Of a stretch of DNA of 30,104 bases, positions 2,350-14,262 are shown piece after piece; the stretch's first letter is position 1, and every line of letters begins with the position of its first letter. A model generated the notes under the pieces. It saw nothing but the letters and a program-made list of their open reading frames with translations, did not search any database and was not told where the DNA came from. Source of the DNA: a virus. The position numbers and the translations under genes were made by a program. The stretch covers positions 1-30,104 of the IMG/VR virus record IMGVR_UViG_3300050120_000086, one strand, 5' to 3'.

Positions 2350-2371
2350 AGAAGAAGTGGGCAGCTATACT
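2344..2371 (+). promoter_or_regulatory. Putative promoter P1 using the repeat end as -35 (TTGCGC-16-TATACT)
   Basis: -10 TATACT at 2366-2371 with the same 16-bp spacer as the other promoters; the -35 is the right arm of the inverted repeat. Weaker than its relatives. Confidence 0.55.
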
Positions 2372-2383
2372 ACAAACGTCAAA

Positions 2384-2396
2384 TGCAAGGAGTGCA
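2384..2396 (+). promoter_or_regulatory. Leader hairpin displaying the ribosome binding site
   Basis: TGCA and TGCA pair around the loop AGGAG (2388-2392), five bases before the ATG at 2402. Confidence 0.6.
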
Positions 2397-2401
2397 CAGA
2401 C

Positions 2402-2962
2402 ATGTTGGGATACCTTGATTTACCCCTGATTAAGTACGGTGAGACGTTCAAGTTCCTTGGGCTATTCAAGCGCACGTCCAAGAAGACCAAGTTCTTTTCG
2501 GTCTTCGGTGGTCCGTACGTCGAGAAACCTGAGCACATGGTGGGTGTGAAGATGGCGGTGGAAGTGCCGTTCTTCGATGATGGCTCGATTGAGATAGACG
2601 TACCGACGCGAGACTACAACGTGCCAGACAAGTTCGATCTGGCTGACGGGCTTGAGGAAGCGGGGTACTACATCCTGCAAGGCCGTCCGGTGTACATCGG
2701 GTGCATGGGTGGCAAAGGCCGCACGGGGCTGTTCATGGCCGTGCTGGCTAAGGCATTCGGTATTGCCAACCCAGTGGCGTACGTGCGGGCTGAATACTAT
2801 GCCCATGCGGTGGAGACGGCGGAACAGAAGAAGTACGTCGAGGATTTCGTTATCCCCCCACGTGTGTTGAGCGCCATTAAAGTGGCTCGTCGGCTGGCAC
2901 AGGTCAACCCGCGCCGGTACAAGACCAACGTCCCGAGGGAGGGGGCGGTGAGTTATGAGTGA
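2402..2962 (+). CDS. Cysteine-dependent (dual-specificity-like) phosphatase 1
   Basis: 186 residues. The ATG at 2402 is preferred over the GTG at 2357 because AAGGAG lies at 2387-2392 and the putative promoter -10 lies at 2366, inside the longer version. The P-loop is GCMGGKGRTG (Cys101, Arg107), matching CX5R(T/S) of protein tyrosine and dual-specificity phosphatases, which form a phosphocysteine intermediate. The residue before Cys is Gly rather than the usual His. The segment after the P-loop (FMAVLAKAFG, YVRAEYYAHAVET) is clearly related to the second phosphatase at 4284, so they are paralogues. The substrate is unknown and could be protein, nucleotide or RNA 5' phosphates. First gene of a promoter-led unit. 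Confidence 0.85.
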   Translation: MLGYLDLPLIKYGETFKFLGLFKRTSKKTKFFSVFGGPYVEKPEHMVGVKMAVEVPFFDDGSIEIDVPTRDYNVPDKFDLADGLEEAGYYILQGRPVYIGCMGGKGRTGLFMAVLAKAFGIANPVAYVRAEYYAHAVETAEQKKYVEDFVIPPRVLSAIKVARRLAQVNPRRYKTNVPREGAVSYE

Positions 2963-4283: not shown

Positions 4284-5009
4284 ATGGCAAAGAAATACGG
4301 TAACAGCACGGCGGCGAGCACTGCCAATGCATGGGATAAACATTGGAAGCCCAGCACTGCCAGTTGTTACGCCAGCCACCCAGCGCTGAAGTTTACGGGC
4401 ACGGATGGCGTGGAGTACAGTATCTATGGTGGCAATTGCAGCACGCCGGTCGTGCACGATGCGAATGTGTACGTGGGGTTCACCGGCATGAACGTCAGCA
4501 ATGGCAACCCGGCTTTCCCATGGGATGAGGGGTATGAGGCCACAGTCGTGGTGGATTACCCGATCACAGACATGAGTCCGCCGAGTGATCCAGTGTCATT
4601 CCACAAGTTGGTGGATTGGACGTGCAATCAATTGCGCGCTGGCAAGAAAGTCCATGGCGGGTGCCACGGTGGGCATGGTCGCACGGGCATGTGGCTGGTG
4701 GCGGTAGTGGCGCAAATGACTGGCATGAAGGACGCCATTCAGTACGTGCGCAAGAACTATTGCGAAAAGGCGGTCGAGACGTACAAACAGATCGACTTCC
4801 TGATGGCCGAATTTGGGGTGAGCAAGGCCGATGAAACGAAGAAATTCATTACCACCAAAACCAGTGCCACGCTGGCCGATGACTGGGATAAGTACAAGAC
4901 CAACGGCTATCAGGGCAGCAGCGGGTCGTCCGTTAAGTCCTCACCCGCGAATTTCCTGAATGCCACGCGGCACTTCAATGCAGTGGATTCGGTAAAGACC
5001 ATTTGGTAA
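4284..5009 (+). CDS. Cysteine-dependent (dual-specificity-like) phosphatase 2
   Basis: 241 residues. The P-loop GGCHGGHGRTG has nucleophile Cys127 and Arg133 (CX5RT). The flanking region (YVRKNYCEKAVETYKQ) matches the first phosphatase at 2402. An acidic stretch about 35 residues upstream (VVVDYPITDMSPPSD) could hold the general acid. The C-terminal 70 residues, including a Ser/Gly-rich linker, are specific to this copy. Codons at 4622-4637 overlap a near-perfect copy of the 16-bp inverted repeat. There is no promoter directly upstream, but the ribosome binding site still sits in a leader-type hairpin. Confidence 0.86.
   Translation: MAKKYGNSTAASTANAWDKHWKPSTASCYASHPALKFTGTDGVEYSIYGGNCSTPVVHDANVYVGFTGMNVSNGNPAFPWDEGYEATVVVDYPITDMSPPSDPVSFHKLVDWTCNQLRAGKKVHGGCHGGHGRTGMWLVAVVAQMTGMKDAIQYVRKNYCEKAVETYKQIDFLMAEFGVSKADETKKFITTKTSATLADDWDKYKTNGYQGSSGSSVKSSPANFLNATRHFNAVDSVKTIW
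4622..4637 (+). repeat. 16-bp inverted repeat, copy 3 (in phosphatase 2 gene)
   Basis: GTGCAATCAATTGCGC, 15 of 16; encodes NQLR in frame. Confidence 0.65.
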
Positions 5010-6875: not shown

Positions 6876-9219
6876 CCTACAAGTCGATGTAGTCCAGAGT
6901 TACGACGAAATAGCAGACTTGTCGCCCAACGCGGTATTCGCCTTGGGCGACGATGCGTTAGCAGTATTGCAAGACCTTGGGGTGGCGCACAAGGGGCGTA
7001 AGATCGGATCACTGCGGGGCAAAACCATGATGCTACCGAGCGGAGTGCCGGTCATGGTGAGTTATAGCCCCAGCATTGGCGAAGTAGACCACGGTATGTA
7101 CGTCAACCTGTTGACCGACACCAGTATGGTGGCGCGACTGGCCGCGACTGGCTCACTAGAGGCACAGTTGGGTGACTACCGGTATGTCGAGCATTTCAAG
7201 GAGTTCCAACAACGGGTGATCACGCTGTTTGAGAAGAATGGTGGTAAGGCCGTTGACTGCTCACTCGACCTTGAAACCATCGGACTAGACGAGTTCGCAG
7301 AGCCGCAGTACGCACAGGCAATTGATGGGCTGATGCACACCCAGATAGAAGTCCATCCCGGCGCGTATATCGTGAGTATTCAACTGTCTTGTGAGTTCGG
7401 TAAGTCCGATGTGGTGCGGTTTAACAACCGCATCCATGAGCAGACGATGCTACACGACTGGGCGTTCGTGCAGACATTGAGTTGGATTCTGAGCACGCCT
7501 ATGATTAGCATGAAGGGCGCTAATCTCAAGTTCGATTTGAGGTGGTTATATGCCAGAGCAGGACTCACGTGCACCAATTTCAGATTCGATACCACGCTCG
7601 TGGGAAGTTTGTTGGACGAAAACCGGATCAATGGTCTGGACGTACACGCAAAGATATATCTCCCCATCCTTGGTGGCTACAGTGATGAGTTCGACCGCAC
7701 CGTCGATAAATCGCGCATGGACTTGGTGCCCCCAGAGCGGTTGTTACCTTATGCTGGAGGCGACACCGATGCTGATCTGCAAGTAGCGGCTGCGATGAAG
7801 CAAGAGCTATTGGCTGACCCCAAACTAGCGGGGTTCTACGTCAATATCTTGCACCCGGCAGCGCGTGCATTCGAGGTGGTGGAACGCGGTGGCATCTACA
7901 TTGATCGTGAGAAGTTCCGCGCGCTGGAAGCCGATCTGAATACCGAGGCGATTCGCATCGTCCACAAAGCCAAACAGATATACGGTGGGTTGTTGGTGGC
8001 GAAACACAGTGACGAGACCAAGGCCGGTGGAATGAACATCACCAAAGCCTCGTTGATCACCGAGTACATGTTTAGCCCGCGCGGCCTCAACCTGAAACCA
8101 CTGGATTTCACAGACAAGACACACGCACCGTCCACGAGTATGGATCACCTACTCAAGTTTAAGGACGTACCAGAGGCCAAGGAGTTGGTGGAGTGCCTGA
8201 GTGAGTATGGGAGCGTCACCAAGACGCTGGGCACGTACGTAGTGGGGTTCATGAAGCACCTACGCAGTGATGGCCGCTTCCACCCCAGCTATTGGTTCTT
8301 CGTGGGAGACAAGGAGGATGGCGAGGGCGGGGCAAACACCGGTCGCCTGTCATGTAAGACCCCGGCATTCCAGACCATTCCAGTACACACCAAGTGGGCA
8401 CCCCGCATTCAAGAGTGTTACATCGCACCCGATGGGTACGTCATAGCTGCCAAGGACTACAGTCAAGGTGAGTTGCGTACGATGGCCTGCATTGCTAATG
8501 AGCCGAATATGCTCAAGGTGTACCGTGAGGGGCTGGACATGCACTCTCTCACCAGTGGCAGATTTGCGGGCTACACGTATGACGAGATGATGGCGATGAA
8601 GAACTCTCCTGATAAGGCTATGCGTGAGAAGTTCAAACATATACGTCAGTACGGTAAGGCAGGCAATTTCGGCAAGATATATGGAATGGGTGTTGATGGC
8701 TTCATTGCCTATGCCTTCATTAACTACGGTGTGACACTAACACAGAAAGAGAGTCAGGAGTTCCACGACACGTTCTTTGGTACGTACCCGGTGCTGCTCG
8801 AATACCACAAAAACCAGAAAGCCGAGGCCAAGAAGTACAAACAAGTCCGCAGCCCTCTTGGGCGCATTCGGCACTTGCCTCTTATCGATAGCCCCAAGCA
8901 AGACGTGCGGGCACAGGCAGAACGTCAGGCCATCAACAGCCCAAATCAATCGACCCTCAGTGACATGATGCTTTGGTCATTCAGCGAAATGCAAGCCCAG
9001 TACCCAGAGTTGTATGAACAGCAAATCATTATGCCGTTCGGAGCCGTGCATGACAGTGGTTATGACTACCTGCTAGAGGATCGGGCTGAGGAGCTAATCA
9101 AGTACCAAATTGAGGTAATGCAGAATTTACCATTTCACAAAGTCGGGTGGCATCCACAACTTCAGTTTCTTGCTGATGGAAAACTCGGTAAGAACATGCG
9201 TGATATGGAGGACGTATGA
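6796..9219 (+). CDS. Family A DNA polymerase with 3'-5' exonuclease and UDG-like N-terminal domain
   Basis: 807 residues, replicative polymerase of the phage. Residues about 38-105 (VFALGDDALAVL, then a LRGK...VPVMVSYSPS segment) resemble the uracil-DNA glycosylase-like domain fused to some phage polymerases. The proofreading exonuclease has DLET (Asp158, Glu160), NLKFD (Asn243-Asp247) and YAGGD (Tyr319-Asp323). The polymerase domain shows motif A DYSQGELR (Asp554), motif B RQYGKAGNFGKIYG (Arg617, Lys621, Phe625, Tyr629) and motif C VHDS (Asp753). Motif C has Ser where most family A enzymes have Glu, and motif A has Gly where Ile is usual. Phe625 at the ribose-selectivity position is the E. 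coli Pol I type. The start overlaps the upstream gene by 80 bases, but GGTGG just upstream supports it. There is no 5'-nuclease domain. Confidence 0.97.
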   Translation: MKLVIWCSSPTYKVRSSLSLALRQQPDLQVDVVQSYDEIADLSPNAVFALGDDALAVLQDLGVAHKGRKIGSLRGKTMMLPSGVPVMVSYSPSIGEVDHGMYVNLLTDTSMVARLAATGSLEAQLGDYRYVEHFKEFQQRVITLFEKNGGKAVDCSLDLETIGLDEFAEPQYAQAIDGLMHTQIEVHPGAYIVSIQLSCEFGKSDVVRFNNRIHEQTMLHDWAFVQTLSWILSTPMISMKGANLKFDLRWLYARAGLTCTNFRFDTTLVGSLLDENRINGLDVHAKIYLPILGGYSDEFDRTVDKSRMDLVPPERLLPYAGGDTDADLQVAAAMKQELLADPKLAGFYVNILHPAARAFEVVERGGIYIDREKFRALEADLNTEAIRIVHKAKQIYGGLLVAKHSDETKAGGMNITKASLITEYMFSPRGLNLKPLDFTDKTHAPSTSMDHLLKFKDVPEAKELVECLSEYGSVTKTLGTYVVGFMKHLRSDGRFHPSYWFFVGDKEDGEGGANTGRLSCKTPAFQTIPVHTKWAPRIQECYIAPDGYVIAAKDYSQGELRTMACIANEPNMLKVYREGLDMHSLTSGRFAGYTYDEMMAMKNSPDKAMREKFKHIRQYGKAGNFGKIYGMGVDGFIAYAFINYGVTLTQKESQEFHDTFFGTYPVLLEYHKNQKAEAKKYKQVRSPLGRIRHLPLIDSPKQDVRAQAERQAINSPNQSTLSDMMLWSFSEMQAQYPELYEQQIIMPFGAVHDSGYDYLLEDRAEELIKYQIEVMQNLPFHKVGWHPQLQFLADGKLGKNMRDMEDV

Positions 9220-9584
9220 AAGGTATGCGCAAAATGACGCTGCAAGAGCGCATTATCGCGTACATGAAAATTGATGATAAAGGGTGCTGGATTTGTCAGC
9301 TAACGCCAACCCGAGATGGTTATGTGCTTATGCGATGGCAAACGGTCAAGACCCTTGTTCATCGGCTGGCATACGAGGCATTTGTTGGCCCTATCCCGGA
9401 AGGGCTGTCGGTATTGCATACATGTGACGTACGTGCGTGTTGCAACCCCAACCATTTGTTCCCCGGAACCTATTCTGATAACTCTAAAGACGCAGTAGCT
9501 AAGGGGCGTCAGAAAAATCTCTTTCCCTCCGGGGATGAACACCCCAAACGGAAAGCTAAATTACTTGCTATGGAGGAAGTGTGA
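9216..9584 (+). CDS. HNH endonuclease (HNH_3-type, homing-like)
   Basis: 122 residues, ATGA overlap with the polymerase stop. The order GCWIC, VHRLAYEAFVGPIPEG, HTCDVRACCNPNHLFPGT, then a KGR segment is the typical free-standing HNH_3 homing endonuclease seen in phages; His and Cys residues form the beta-beta-alpha metal site. Such genes often sit next to polymerase genes and spread by cutting genomes that lack them. The overlap with the polymerase implies it is well integrated and coupled. An in-frame ATG at 9228 is an alternative start. Confidence 0.93.
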   Translation: MKGMRKMTLQERIIAYMKIDDKGCWICQLTPTRDGYVLMRWQTVKTLVHRLAYEAFVGPIPEGLSVLHTCDVRACCNPNHLFPGTYSDNSKDAVAKGRQKNLFPSGDEHPKRKAKLLAMEEV

Positions 9585-10773: not shown

Positions 10774-11274
10774 ATGACGAACAACTGCCTGCCAGATACC
10801 ACAGACATAGTGGACTGCCAGAAGTACTTACCCCTCACAGACGCTGAGTGGGAGGCAGTACGTACAATAATCGCGCAGGTGAGTAAAGAAGGTGAAGTAC
10901 GGCGCGGACGGCCCAGTGTAAATTGCCGCACGCTCGTGGACGCCATAACACACGCCATAAGTTTCAACATCCCCATTAAGTGGGTGGGCAGCAGTACTAT
11001 GGTGTACCCAAGTAGACCAACGTTATACCGGTACTACAAAATGATGGTGCTAAGCGGGGTCATCAACCAGTATGTACTTCGGATGGCCTGCTACAGACAG
11101 GACTTCCTAGAGCAGTATCTGCAATACCGGCATCGAGTGAAAGGATGTCCGCCACCACCGCCAACGCGCGAACAACTCAAAGTGATGTTAAAGCCAGAAC
11201 CTGAGCCAGTTCGTGGGCGGGCAGGAATTATCTCGCCCGTACCATGGGGTCCACCCGGCAGACCAACACAGTAG
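10774..11274 (+). CDS. DUF4096-like (IS4/IS5 transposase N-terminal HTH) protein
   Basis: 166 residues, AAGGA nine bases before the ATG. Residues about 20-105 follow the pattern of the N-terminal helix-turn-helix domain of IS5-type transposases: LTDAEWEAVRTII, a GRPS segment, LVDAITHAISFNIPIKWV, then PTLYRYYKMMVLSGV. The catalytic DDE domain is absent, and a Pro-rich tail follows instead. I see no terminal repeats or flanking duplications, so this is not an active insertion sequence. Position just before the terminase genes suggests a domesticated DNA-binding protein, perhaps assisting packaging or regulation. The family resemblance is fairly strong; the role is inferred. Confidence 0.8.
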   Translation: MTNNCLPDTTDIVDCQKYLPLTDAEWEAVRTIIAQVSKEGEVRRGRPSVNCRTLVDAITHAISFNIPIKWVGSSTMVYPSRPTLYRYYKMMVLSGVINQYVLRMACYRQDFLEQYLQYRHRVKGCPPPPPTREQLKVMLKPEPEPVRGRAGIISPVPWGPPGRPTQ

Positions 11275-11373: not shown

Positions 11374-12351
11374 ATGGCCGTCACATTCAAGAACCCCCAA
11401 CAGTACGCCCATGCCTATCCACGGCAGAAGGCGGAGGCGCGGGCGAAAAAAAGTATTACCCAAACCAAGAAAGAAGAATTGCATGCTAAGAAACTACTGG
11501 CATTCTGGGAAGCCAGAAGCGAAGTAGATGCAGAATTGCGGGCGAGTCTCGATAAGCTGCATATACCACAAACAATAGAAATGGGGATCAAGACCGGCAG
11601 AATCAGTGCTCAAGAAATCATTGAGACCGTACAGACAATGTACAACTGCACACTCGGACCACTTGAGCGGCGATGGATCGTGGCGAACATTATCTCAAGG
11701 GACATGTTTGCTGGCCGATCACCTGATAGCCAGAAGTACTGCCCGGAGGTCGCACAGTACATTATTGAACGTATGTGCCAAGGCGAACCGCTAAGGTCGG
11801 TCTGTAGAGACCCGTCTATGCCGTTTATTTCGCGTTTTTTAGTCTGGGTGATAGAAAACCCGGATTTGCAAGAACAATACAACCGTGCGAAGGAAATAGC
11901 GGCCATGAGTATGGCTGAGGATATTCCACACATTGTTGATGACGCACGCATGGGCGTGACGTTGTACCACAAAGCAGACGGGACCGTAGAAATACAGACA
12001 GTAGACATGTTGGGTAGGAGCAAGCTGCAATACGAGGCCCGTAAGTGGATTATCAGCAAGATACTGCACAACACGTACGGCACGGTCGAAGCCGAACTCG
12101 AAGGTGGTGACAATACGGTCCACGTTAAGGTCACGGGCGGATTGCCTGATGGACTGGCGGGTCAATTGATGACGCCAGAACAACGTAAAGCCCACGATGA
12201 TGCCCAATACGCGGCAGTAAATGGCAACAAGTCAGTCAATGGCGGACTGGAATTGGGTAAGGGCCTGACGGTTGAAGGCGGATTACCGGGCGGTCAAGGT
12301 GGTTTGCCTGCCAACCCATGGGACAACCCTATCCCTACGGCGGACGCATGA
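11374..12351 (+). CDS. Terminase small subunit (Sf6 gp1-like)
   Basis: 325 residues, longer than the usual 150-200. The core (about 125-260) matches the Terminase_5/Sf6-type small subunit: EVAQYIIERMCQGEPLRSVCRD, a VWVIENPDLQEQYNRA segment, AMSMAEDIPHIVDDA, and KLQYEARKWIISKI near the end. This subunit recognises the packaging site and feeds DNA to the large subunit. The N-terminal 120 residues are Lys/Glu-rich, the last 60 Gly-rich. There is no good Shine-Dalgarno before the ATG at 11374. Its stop overlaps the large-subunit start (ATGA). Confidence 0.9.
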   Translation: MAVTFKNPQQYAHAYPRQKAEARAKKSITQTKKEELHAKKLLAFWEARSEVDAELRASLDKLHIPQTIEMGIKTGRISAQEIIETVQTMYNCTLGPLERRWIVANIISRDMFAGRSPDSQKYCPEVAQYIIERMCQGEPLRSVCRDPSMPFISRFLVWVIENPDLQEQYNRAKEIAAMSMAEDIPHIVDDARMGVTLYHKADGTVEIQTVDMLGRSKLQYEARKWIISKILHNTYGTVEAELEGGDNTVHVKVTGGLPDGLAGQLMTPEQRKAHDDAQYAAVNGNKSVNGGLELGKGLTVEGGLPGGQGGLPANPWDNPIPTADA

Positions 12352-13667
12352 GTGCGCACAGCCACGTTATTCTGCCAACCTTCCATAGCGGCCAGATTGC
12401 TGCGTGGAATGCCCGTACGCAGTTCTTTGCACTATGTTGCGGCAGGCGCTGGGGCAAGACTGACTTTGCAAAGATCGTAGTGGGCGATGCCGCGATCAAG
12501 GGCAAGACCGTGGGTATCTTCGTCCCTAACTACAAGATCATGGTAGAGCTTTATAACGAAATGGAGGCCATGCTCTTTCCCATCAAACGCACGTCCAGCA
12601 AGGCAGAATGGCGTCAGTCCTTCCTGACGGGTGGCCGGATTGACTACTGGTCGCTGGAAAACGAGCAAGCTGGGCGCTCGCGCAGATACGACCTCGTAGT
12701 GATCGATGAAGCGGCGTTCGCCAAGAACTCCACCATGAACGAGCAGTGGGATAAGGCCATTTACGCCACGATCTTTGACACCGGAGGCAGTGCGCTGGTC
12801 ATGAGCACGCCCAATGGCGTGAATGATGAGAACTTCTTCTACAGGGTGTGCCAACGCGGTAATCCACAAGGTTTTACGCTGTTCCACGCGCCAACCTACA
12901 GTAATCCGCTCATTCCTTATCGCAAGATCGGAGAAACAGATGAGGAGTACCGGCTGCGCAGGAATGCCGAATTCCAAAAGGTGAAGGACCAGAAACCCCC
13001 GCTGGTCTACCGGCAGGAGTTCCTTGCGGAATTCGTGGACTGGGGCGGCGATGCGTTCTTCGATATCAGTAAGATGCTGGTCAAGAATGCACCAGTTGAG
13101 TACCCGCAACACGTAGAATATGTGGTCGCCACCATTGATACGGCGGTGAAAGACGGTCAAGAGAACGATGGCACGGCGGTATGTTTCTGGGCGGTCAACA
13201 AGTACGGTAAAGGCGCACCGCTGACGCTGCTGGACTGGGATATCGTGCAAGTCACAGGCAACCTACTTATCGACTGGTTACCCGGTATTTACACCACGCT
13301 TGAGGAACTGGCGGTCAAGTGCAAGGCCCGATATGGCACGGGCGGGTGCTTCATTGAAGACAAGATTAGCGGTACGATCCTTCTCCAGCAAAGTGCGGTG
13401 CTGGGCTATCAGACCACACCGATACCGGGCAAAATCACGGATAAAGGCAAGGACGGGCGTGCACTGGGCGTCAGCGGGTACTATCATAGAGAACAGATAA
13501 AGATTCATGAAGTAGCGTGGAACCGAACCAAGAACTACAAGGGTGAGGAGAAGAATCACCTGCTAGACCAGATCAAGAAGTTCTATCTGGCTGACAAAGA
13601 CTTGCTGGATGCATTCGTTTACGGCCCAGCCTGCGTATTCGGCATTGGTGAAGACATATTTGAGTGA
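12348..13667 (+). CDS. terL: Terminase large subunit (packaging ATPase-nuclease)
   Basis: 439 residues from the ATG that overlaps the small-subunit stop; an in-frame ATG at 12318 is less likely. Walker A is CCGRRWGKT (Lys37), Walker B is YDLVVIDE (Asp120, Glu121), and the coupling motif is STPNG. The C-terminal RNase H-like nuclease has acidic residues in TIDT (Asp264), FIEDK (Glu337, Asp338) and LLDAF (Asp421). It is the motor that pumps DNA into the prohead and cuts the concatemer. All key residues look intact. Unusually, no portal or capsid genes follow. Confidence 0.97.
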   Translation: MSAHSHVILPTFHSGQIAAWNARTQFFALCCGRRWGKTDFAKIVVGDAAIKGKTVGIFVPNYKIMVELYNEMEAMLFPIKRTSSKAEWRQSFLTGGRIDYWSLENEQAGRSRRYDLVVIDEAAFAKNSTMNEQWDKAIYATIFDTGGSALVMSTPNGVNDENFFYRVCQRGNPQGFTLFHAPTYSNPLIPYRKIGETDEEYRLRRNAEFQKVKDQKPPLVYRQEFLAEFVDWGGDAFFDISKMLVKNAPVEYPQHVEYVVATIDTAVKDGQENDGTAVCFWAVNKYGKGAPLTLLDWDIVQVTGNLLIDWLPGIYTTLEELAVKCKARYGTGGCFIEDKISGTILLQQSAVLGYQTTPIPGKITDKGKDGRALGVSGYYHREQIKIHEVAWNRTKNYKGEEKNHLLDQIKKFYLADKDLLDAFVYGPACVFGIGEDIFE

Positions 13668-13674
13668 GGTGCGT

Positions 13675-14004
13675 ATGAACCGCAACATGTTGAGCAACAT
13701 CGAGCATCAAGTGCGTGGCGGCAAGTCTGTTGGAGTGTTTGCCAGTAGCTACCCGGAAATGGCGGAGTTATTCAAAGAAGTACAGACGGCCATGCCGCAG
13801 GGGCTATTTAGTAAAGCCGAATGGATTGGGCGCTTCAGCACTGGCGGTCGCATTGACTTCTGGAATACCGAAGTAGCAAATACTGGCCGGGGTCGAAAAT
13901 ACGACCTGACTGTGGTTGACGAGAAAGTGCTGGGCACACCAGTGTGGGAGAGGGACATCAAACCATCGATGTTCGATACCCAAGGCGTGTGTCTAGTTGC
14001 TTAG
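13675..14004 (+). CDS. Stand-alone fragment-like paralogue of the terminase ATPase core
   Basis: 109 residues, starting seven bases after the large terminase stop; GTGAGGTG precedes the ATG. By eye, about 41 of roughly 90 positions match the large subunit from just after its Walker A through Walker B: VGVFASSY against VGIFVPNY, SKAEW, TGGRID, GR-R-YDL-V-DE, then FDT. The Walker A loop and whole nuclease domain are missing, and it stops shortly before the STPNG motif. The Walker B acidic pair (VVDE) remains. The frame is intact and has a ribosome site, so it looks expressed rather than decayed. It could bind the terminase or prohead, or be a recent partial duplication. Confidence 0.83.
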   Translation: MNRNMLSNIEHQVRGGKSVGVFASSYPEMAELFKEVQTAMPQGLFSKAEWIGRFSTGGRIDFWNTEVANTGRGRKYDLTVVDEKVLGTPVWERDIKPSMFDTQGVCLVA

Positions 14005-14013
14005 GAGCAGATC

Positions 14014-14262
14014 ATGGGCTTCGTAATGAGCAAGGAATTACCGTTTGAGTACGACCCGCAAGCCACGTACCCTAACACCGGCCAACGTGGGTGTAGTAGT
14101 TTGCAGGTAACGCGTATGAACATCGATAAGCACGAGCGAGTGTACGCGACCATTCCGAACTTCGACATGCGGTACATGGTAGTTGTGGCGTTGACCAAAA
14201 GGCAGTTGGAGATGCTGATGGCCGATGATCCGCAGGCATTCGATGATGTTCAACCCGTGTAA
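14014..14262 (+). CDS. Hypothetical protein, 82 aa
   Basis: TAGGAG precedes the ATG, at the end of the terminase-like fragment gene; an in-frame ATG at 14026 is possible. The middle (HERVYATIPNFDMRYMVVVALTK) looks like two beta strands and the end is acidic. Unknown. Confidence 0.7.
   Translation: MGFVMSKELPFEYDPQATYPNTGQRGCSSLQVTRMNIDKHERVYATIPNFDMRYMVVVALTKRQLEMLMADDPQAFDDVQPV

What the first reader, a model, noticed from the sequence alone, without database searches (positions are those of the whole stretch)
13675..14004. Free-standing terminase ATPase fragment downstream of the terminase
The 109-residue protein aligns at about 41 of 90 positions with residues roughly 53-145 of the large terminase directly upstream. 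It starts just after the Walker A loop, keeps the Walker B Asp-Glu, and ends before the coupling motif and nuclease. It is in frame and has a ribosome site, so it is not simple debris. It cannot hydrolyse ATP alone. It might form mixed rings with the motor, regulate it, or be a decoy.
Basis: partly seen in the sequence, partly recalled or inferred. Interest (0 to 1): 0.76.

Follow-up and report, generated by a model that had tools for sequence, protein, structure and literature searches.

The report
Free-standing, P-loop-less terminase ATPase core
Right after its DNA-packaging motor gene this phage carries a small intact gene for a piece of the same motor that cannot bind ATP by itself; similar stand-alone pieces, kept by selection and mostly annotated 'hypothetical', sit beside the motor genes of many actinobacterial phages, which suggests an undescribed accessory part of the packaging machine.

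Summary
ORF 13675-14004 (109 aa) starts 7 bases after the large terminase (TerL, 12318-13667) and is a paralogue of TerL residues 62-161 (41/100 identical, E 2e-22). It begins after the P-loop, keeps Walker B Asp-Glu and stops before the coupling motif. It shares TerL-clade signatures and branches beside TerL of the window and of L001; L001 itself lacks it. Going beyond the finding: annotated actinophages carry whole families (PHROG 6910, 34977, probably 3167) of free-standing 108-155-aa proteins with the same span, no P-loop, mostly no catalytic Glu, and usually gene order small protein-TerS-TerL. They are under purifying selection (omega 0.1-0.35 in most resolvable pairs). All 24 actinophage proteins read, and the window's, keep an Arg at the place of the P74-26 trans-arginine finger. 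The window gene looks like a separately arisen member of this kind. Best model: a non-hydrolysing accessory protein that binds the TerL ring, perhaps offering its arginine to a neighbouring ATP site. Paralogy and recurrence are shown; the function is inferred. Recent decay of the window copy is disfavoured, not excluded.

The parts
12318..13667 (+). large terminase TerL, 449 aa (Walker A GRRWGKT ending at K47-T48, Walker B VVIDE 130-131, coupling motif STPNG 163-167, nuclease domain)
   Evidence: PHROG 2 terminase large subunit E 1e-29 and Pfam Terminase_6N E 3e-5; alignment A1
13675..14004 (+). free-standing P-loop-less TerL ATPase core, 109 aa
   Evidence: BLASTP to TerL E 2e-22; AlphaFold2 mean pLDDT 93.7; Foldseek best PDB matches are TerL ATPase domains
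13665..13677 (+). terL stop codon, GAGG-type ribosome site and ATG of the fragment (7-base gap)
   Evidence: sequence read
13885..13923 (+). GRGRKYDLTVVDE: R72 at the place of the P74-26 trans-arginine finger, followed by Walker B D82-E83
   Evidence: phmmer and profile alignments to 4zni and its R139A mutant 4znj; alignments
11374..12351 (+). small terminase (TerS), directly upstream of TerL
   Evidence: Pfam Sf6_terminase E 4e-23, PHROG 1482 E 5e-25
14014..14262 (+). next gene, 82 aa, unknown; its ribosome site overlaps the fragment's stop codon
   Evidence: sequence; no PHROG below E 0.04

Best explanation
The ORF is a working gene that arose from a partial copy of a terL of this phage's own lineage. 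It makes a stand-alone TerL ATPase core: the helix after the P-loop, the following strands, the loop with the conserved arginine and the Walker B strand. It has no P-loop, coupling motif, lid or nuclease, so it cannot bind and hydrolyse ATP by itself. It belongs to a recurrent kind of packaging accessory protein seen beside TerS-TerL in many actinophages. The most likely mechanism is that it docks on the TerL ring at a subunit interface, offering its loop arginine (R72) to the ATP site of a neighbouring TerL while having no ATP cycle of its own, and thereby regulates motor assembly, start or stop. Shown: homology, boundaries, intact reading frame, recurrence, selection on the actinophage family, conservation of the arginine. 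Inferred: translation, TerL binding, the role of the arginine and the regulatory effect.
For: Paralogy with TerL and placement beside window and L001 TerL (FastTree 0.78; IQ-TREE 95/74), supported by shared signatures SKxEW and FDT. It keeps 21 of 31 strongly conserved TerL positions in its span, including W63, G71, R72, R74, D82 and E83, while changing 10, more than any of 63 TerLs (maximum 8): constraint differing from TerL rather than random decay. omega=1 on its branch is rejected, 2 delta lnL 11.3. Confident fold matching TerL ATPase domains. BFVD best hit is a free-standing 108-aa actinophage protein, TM 0.81/0.82. The actinophage families match TerL profiles and TerL, commonly sit directly before TerS-TerL, and have pairwise omega mostly 0.1-0.35 with omega=1 rejected. 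All 26 stand-alone proteins examined (24 actinophage plus window and L069) lack a P-loop; 25 keep Arg five residues before the Asp position that opens the Walker B strand, L069 excepted. [quoted passage not shown] L069 has a TerL-adjacent ATPase half with all three catalytic motifs lost and an open frame.
Against: No close relative of the window gene exists in the collections searched, so its selection rests on one sequence with saturated synonymous sites, and a recent neutral phase is tolerated. L001 (TerL 73%) lacks it. Its codon usage is less typical than TerL's. The Arg-Gly loop may be kept for folding only; in D6E TerL the finger is a different residue, R158 (PMC5727402). Some weak relatives lie away from terL: UmaThurman gp10, LeBron gp94. 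No complex was predicted.
Confidence: 0.5

Rival explanations
1. A recent, decaying remnant of a partial terL duplication or of a terL acquired from a related phage; not yet broken by chance.
For: Only one copy known; absent from L001; the codon model prefers a long TerL-like branch and tolerates a short neutral phase (up to about 0.25-0.5 substitutions per codon costs 1-2 lnL units), and P(no stop) is still 0.27-0.46 at that length.
Against: Neutral evolution since the split is rejected. It has changed 10 strongly conserved TerL positions, more than any TerL, yet kept 21, has a ribosome site and operon spacing, and its span matches that of independently kept families.
Confidence: 0.25
2. A decoy or poison aimed at other phages' or satellites' terminases, or protecting TerL from an inhibitor.
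For: It resembles the motor core without catalysis; the site after terL is variable (HNH gene in L001, nothing in L009), typical of accessory genes.
Against: Closest similarity is to its own TerL clade; the actinophage counterparts sit in the structural/packaging operon in a stable order.
Confidence: 0.12
3. An adaptor of the packaging initiation complex (binding DNA near cos/pac, TerS or an HNH protein) that no longer touches the TerL ATP site.
For: Most actinophage genes are first or near the genome ends, next to TerS and in some cases HNH genes.
Against: The arginine that acts on the neighbour's ATP site in P74-26 is the most constant residue.
Confidence: 0.13

Closest known systems
PHROG 34977 / Arthrobacter phage gene 1 family (Elesar gp2, Andrew gp1, Kuleana gp1, LittleTokyo gp1 annotated 'terminase large subunit, ATPase domain')
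   Same: Same length class, same start and end relative to TerL, no P-loop, Arg-Gly loop, next to TerS-TerL
   Different: Lies upstream of TerS; Walker B Asp-Glu mostly lost (DRVFVP-type); groups near actinophage TerL, not with the window's
PHROG 6910 / Mycobacterium cluster O phages (Catdawg gp4, Ryadel gp5-gp6; MadKillah gp4 annotated 'ASCE ATPase')
   Same: P-loop-less TerL core, Walker B DE kept in Catdawg gp4, Arg-Gly loop
   Different: Near the left genome end on the opposite strand, about 12 kb from terL
L069 (IMGVR_UViG_3300044691_000536) ATPase half
   Same: Free-standing ATPase half beside TerL of the same TerL family
   Different: Upstream of TerL, 172 aa, keeps the P-loop region but with K to A, Walker B E to N, STPNG to LSDED, and no Arg at the finger position
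Thermus phage P74-26 TerL ATPase domain (4zni, 4znl, 4znj)
   Same: Best solved structural match; trans-arginine position shared
   Different: Complete ATPase domain with P-loop and lid

Membership tests
Large terminase (TerL) | Walker A / P-loop | tested here: not met
   Fragment begins after it; no P-loop motif
Large terminase (TerL) | Walker B Asp-Glu | tested here: met
   D82-E83
Large terminase (TerL) | coupling motif, lid and RNase H-like nuclease | tested here: not met
   ORF ends at the place of TerL M162
Free-standing P-loop-less TerL cores of actinophages (PHROG 6910, 34977, 3167) | 108-155 aa, same span, no P-loop, full-length fold match | tested here: met
Free-standing P-loop-less TerL cores of actinophages (PHROG 6910, 34977, 3167) | Arg-Gly loop just before the Walker B strand | tested here: met
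   RGRKYD, R72
Free-standing P-loop-less TerL cores of actinophages (PHROG 6910, 34977, 3167) | significant profile match to the family | tested here: inconclusive
   PHROG 6910 E 0.026, 3167 E 0.077; family HMM 19 bits, lower than for some TerLs
Free-standing P-loop-less TerL cores of actinophages (PHROG 6910, 34977, 3167) | common descent (one clade) | tested here: inconclusive
   Best tree puts it with its own TerL (95/74); joining the family is 17 lnL worse, AU p 0.146
Free-standing P-loop-less TerL cores of actinophages (PHROG 6910, 34977, 3167) | location in the TerS-TerL module | tested here: met
   Directly after terL, although the actinophage genes lie before TerS and some elsewhere
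Pseudogene / debris | stops, frameshifts or neutral evolution | tested here: not met
   Open frame, gaps in frame; omega=1 rejected over the whole branch, a recent neutral phase not excluded
Trans-arginine-finger donor in a TerL ring | biochemical rescue of an Arg-finger mutant in trans | not testable with these tools
   needs protein experiments

The most novel reading that the evidence does not exclude
Tailed phages have repeatedly turned a piece of their own packaging motor into a separate pseudo-ATPase subunit that carries the trans-acting arginine but no ATP site. It would be a dedicated interface partner that sets start, stop or symmetry of the TerL ring, and several hypothetical-protein families next to TerS-TerL would share this role.
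Probability: 0.25. Interest if true: 0.85.

Novelty: new variant of a known kind. Interest (0 to 1): 0.62.

Why it matters
TerL motors are modelled as homomeric rings. A conserved, selected, non-hydrolysing TerL core encoded in the same operon would mean that some phage motors have a regulatory pseudo-subunit. It gives a tentative origin and function to protein families now listed as unknown (PHROG 6910, 34977, 3167) in about 70 or more annotated phage records. It is directly testable because many of these phages grow on laboratory Arthrobacter, Gordonia and M. smegmatis strains.

Tried and rejected
Second full or split terL or intron in relatives: none found (the extra short match in L151, L152, L154 and L156 is the start of the same terL read in another frame). 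Close homologues of the fragment in IMG/VR or annotated phages by sequence: none but TerLs, apart from a weak Arthrobacter phage Elesar gp2 hit (E 0.5) that fold and profile comparisons then supported. Relatives through the TerS and MmcB-like neighbours: none. Origin by horizontal transfer from the actinophage family: not favoured by tree and signatures, but not rejected. The 'ASCE ATPase' genes of the cluster AK and DV announcements (PMC11385102, PMC11468179) are listed there under DNA metabolism or modification; I did not examine those sequences and do not count them as this family. Literature searches for truncated, paralogous or pseudo-ATPase terminases found no description. The Catdawg gp4-Ryadel gp6 pair is too close to give a selection estimate (omega 0.98, LR 0). 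Pairs with saturated distance (t 33) give omega values that should not be read as numbers. A simple NG86 estimate gave higher ratios (0.13-0.8 for the pairs with enough changes); I rely on the codon-frequency-aware model.

Full report
Observation. The ORF at 13675-14004 is real and lies 7 bases after the stop of terL, with GTGAGGTG before its ATG; the next gene's ribosome site overlaps its stop. It is homologous to TerL residues 62-161 (41/100 identical, E 2e-22). By ungapped extension its first residue sits at the Walker A lysine, so the P-loop is absent. It keeps Walker B Asp-Glu and its last residue falls just before the STPNG coupling motif. The upstream protein is a TerL (PHROG 2, Terminase_6N) and the gene before it a TerS.

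Relatives. The nearest TerL is L001 (99.5-kb IMG/VR contig, 73% identical) with a syntenic TerS. L001 has no second match anywhere in its contig and carries an HNH endonuclease gene after terL instead. L009 (52%) has only a 35-base gap there. Scans of viral and genome contigs plus profile searches of 200 loci found one other phage of this TerL family with an extra ATPase half: L069, where a 172-aa ORF directly before terL keeps the fold region but has Walker A K to A, Walker B E to N and STPNG to LSDED. The fragment shares SKxEW and FDT with window and L001 TerLs, and branches beside them on a long branch (1.1 against about 0.1-0.2 for the two TerLs).

Selection on the window copy. A codon model on 95 codons and 8 sequences gives omega 0.07 on the fragment branch against 0.036 for TerL; omega = 1 is worse by 2 delta lnL 11.3. 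A TerL-like period followed by a short neutral phase cannot be excluded: 0.25-0.5 neutral substitutions per codon cost 1-2 lnL units, and the frame would stay open with probability 0.27-0.46. Synonymous sites are saturated, so this is moderate evidence. The fragment retains 21 of 31 strongly conserved TerL positions and changes 10, more than any of 63 TerLs: not under full TerL constraint, yet far from random.

Fold and the wider family. AlphaFold2 gives a confident model (mean pLDDT 93.7), with the caveat that the alignment consists of TerLs. The best solved structures are TerL ATPase domains, P74-26 first. The best viral match is not a TerL but a free-standing 108-aa protein of Arthrobacter phage MargaretKali (TM 0.81/0.82), and several other small actinophage proteins follow. 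Following these up, PHROG 6910 (Catdawg gp4) matches TerL profiles and Catdawg's own TerL. PHROG 34977 (Elesar gp2) matches PHROG 6910 and 3167. There are 42 Arthrobacter and 31 Mycobacterium records in two searches (some are GenBank/RefSeq duplicates), with weaker relatives in Gordonia and M. abscessus phages. In Andrew, Kuleana, LittleTokyo, Aoka, Polka, TaylorSipht, Galaxy, Abidatro, Bauer, Zucker, Brynnie, Orcanus, Eesa and Gordonia NancyRae the gene directly precedes the TerS (or the DNA-binding or hypothetical gene at that place) and TerL. In Elesar and Ryan one or two genes intervene. In MargaretKali, Whytu and P3MA it lies near the right genome end, and in cluster O near the left end. 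UmaThurman gp10 and LeBron gp94 lie elsewhere. Pairwise codon models give omega 0.1-0.35 for most resolvable pairs, with omega = 1 rejected.

What is constant. All 26 stand-alone proteins examined (24 actinophage, window, L069) lack a P-loop; the Walker B Glu is lost in most; all except L069 have Arg-Gly five residues before the position of the TerL Asp that opens the Walker B strand. Alignment to P74-26 puts this arginine at chain residue 144 of 4zni; the alignment to the R139A mutant 4znj starts only after that residue, so 144 should be R139 in the published numbering (the offset is my inference). [quoted passage not shown] So the catalysis-related residue that persists is the one that would act on a neighbour. 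It may equally be a structural turn.

Interpretation. I consider the window gene a separately arisen case of a recurrent solution: a stand-alone, non-hydrolysing TerL core kept in the packaging module. Binding to TerL at a subunit interface, with the arginine offered in trans, is the mechanism I rate most likely; it is inferred. Descent from the actinophage family is not favoured but not rejected (17 lnL worse, AU p 0.146). I found no paper that describes these proteins, and annotators have used 'terminase large subunit, ATPase domain' (LittleTokyo), 'ASCE ATPase' (MadKillah) and 'ASCE ATPase domain' (P3MA) for single members.

Limits. One window sequence without close homologues, no complex prediction, no experiment; the actinophage sample read in detail is 24 proteins of which several are close relatives; absence from papers refers to the open-access library only.

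Noticed in passing
window 2357-2959 and 4284-5006 (with 28-1728): Two paralogous DSP-PTPase-like proteins (both PHROG 17568, 33% identical over 90 aa) near a PPDK_N/PEP-utiliser-like gene at 28-1728; an unusual phosphotransfer set for a phage.
   Followed up: no
window about 13590-13610 (end of terL): TerL lacks 6-7 residues present in the aligned relatives just before the conserved DLLD of the nuclease domain; the Asp residues themselves are kept.
   Followed up: no
window 9216-9584: HNH_3 endonuclease gene overlapping the end of the DNA polymerase A gene.
   Followed up: no
window 10774-11274; L001 3929-4363: DUF4096 (transposase-derived) protein upstream of TerS in both phages, 33% identical: a conserved neighbour that may be a DNA-binding packaging factor.
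   Followed up: no
L212 2998-3846 (Ryadel gp6 and gp5): Tandem pair of P-loop-less TerL cores (about 46% identical) in one genome; gp5 has a C-terminal Cys/His-rich extension that resembles a stretch in other mycobacteriophages.
   Followed up: partly
L225 7330-7695 (UmaThurman gp10), L227 1462-1833 (LeBron gp94): Weak relatives of the small ATPase core in the head-tail connector region and next to a DnaQ-like gene, so location beside terL is not universal.
   Followed up: partly
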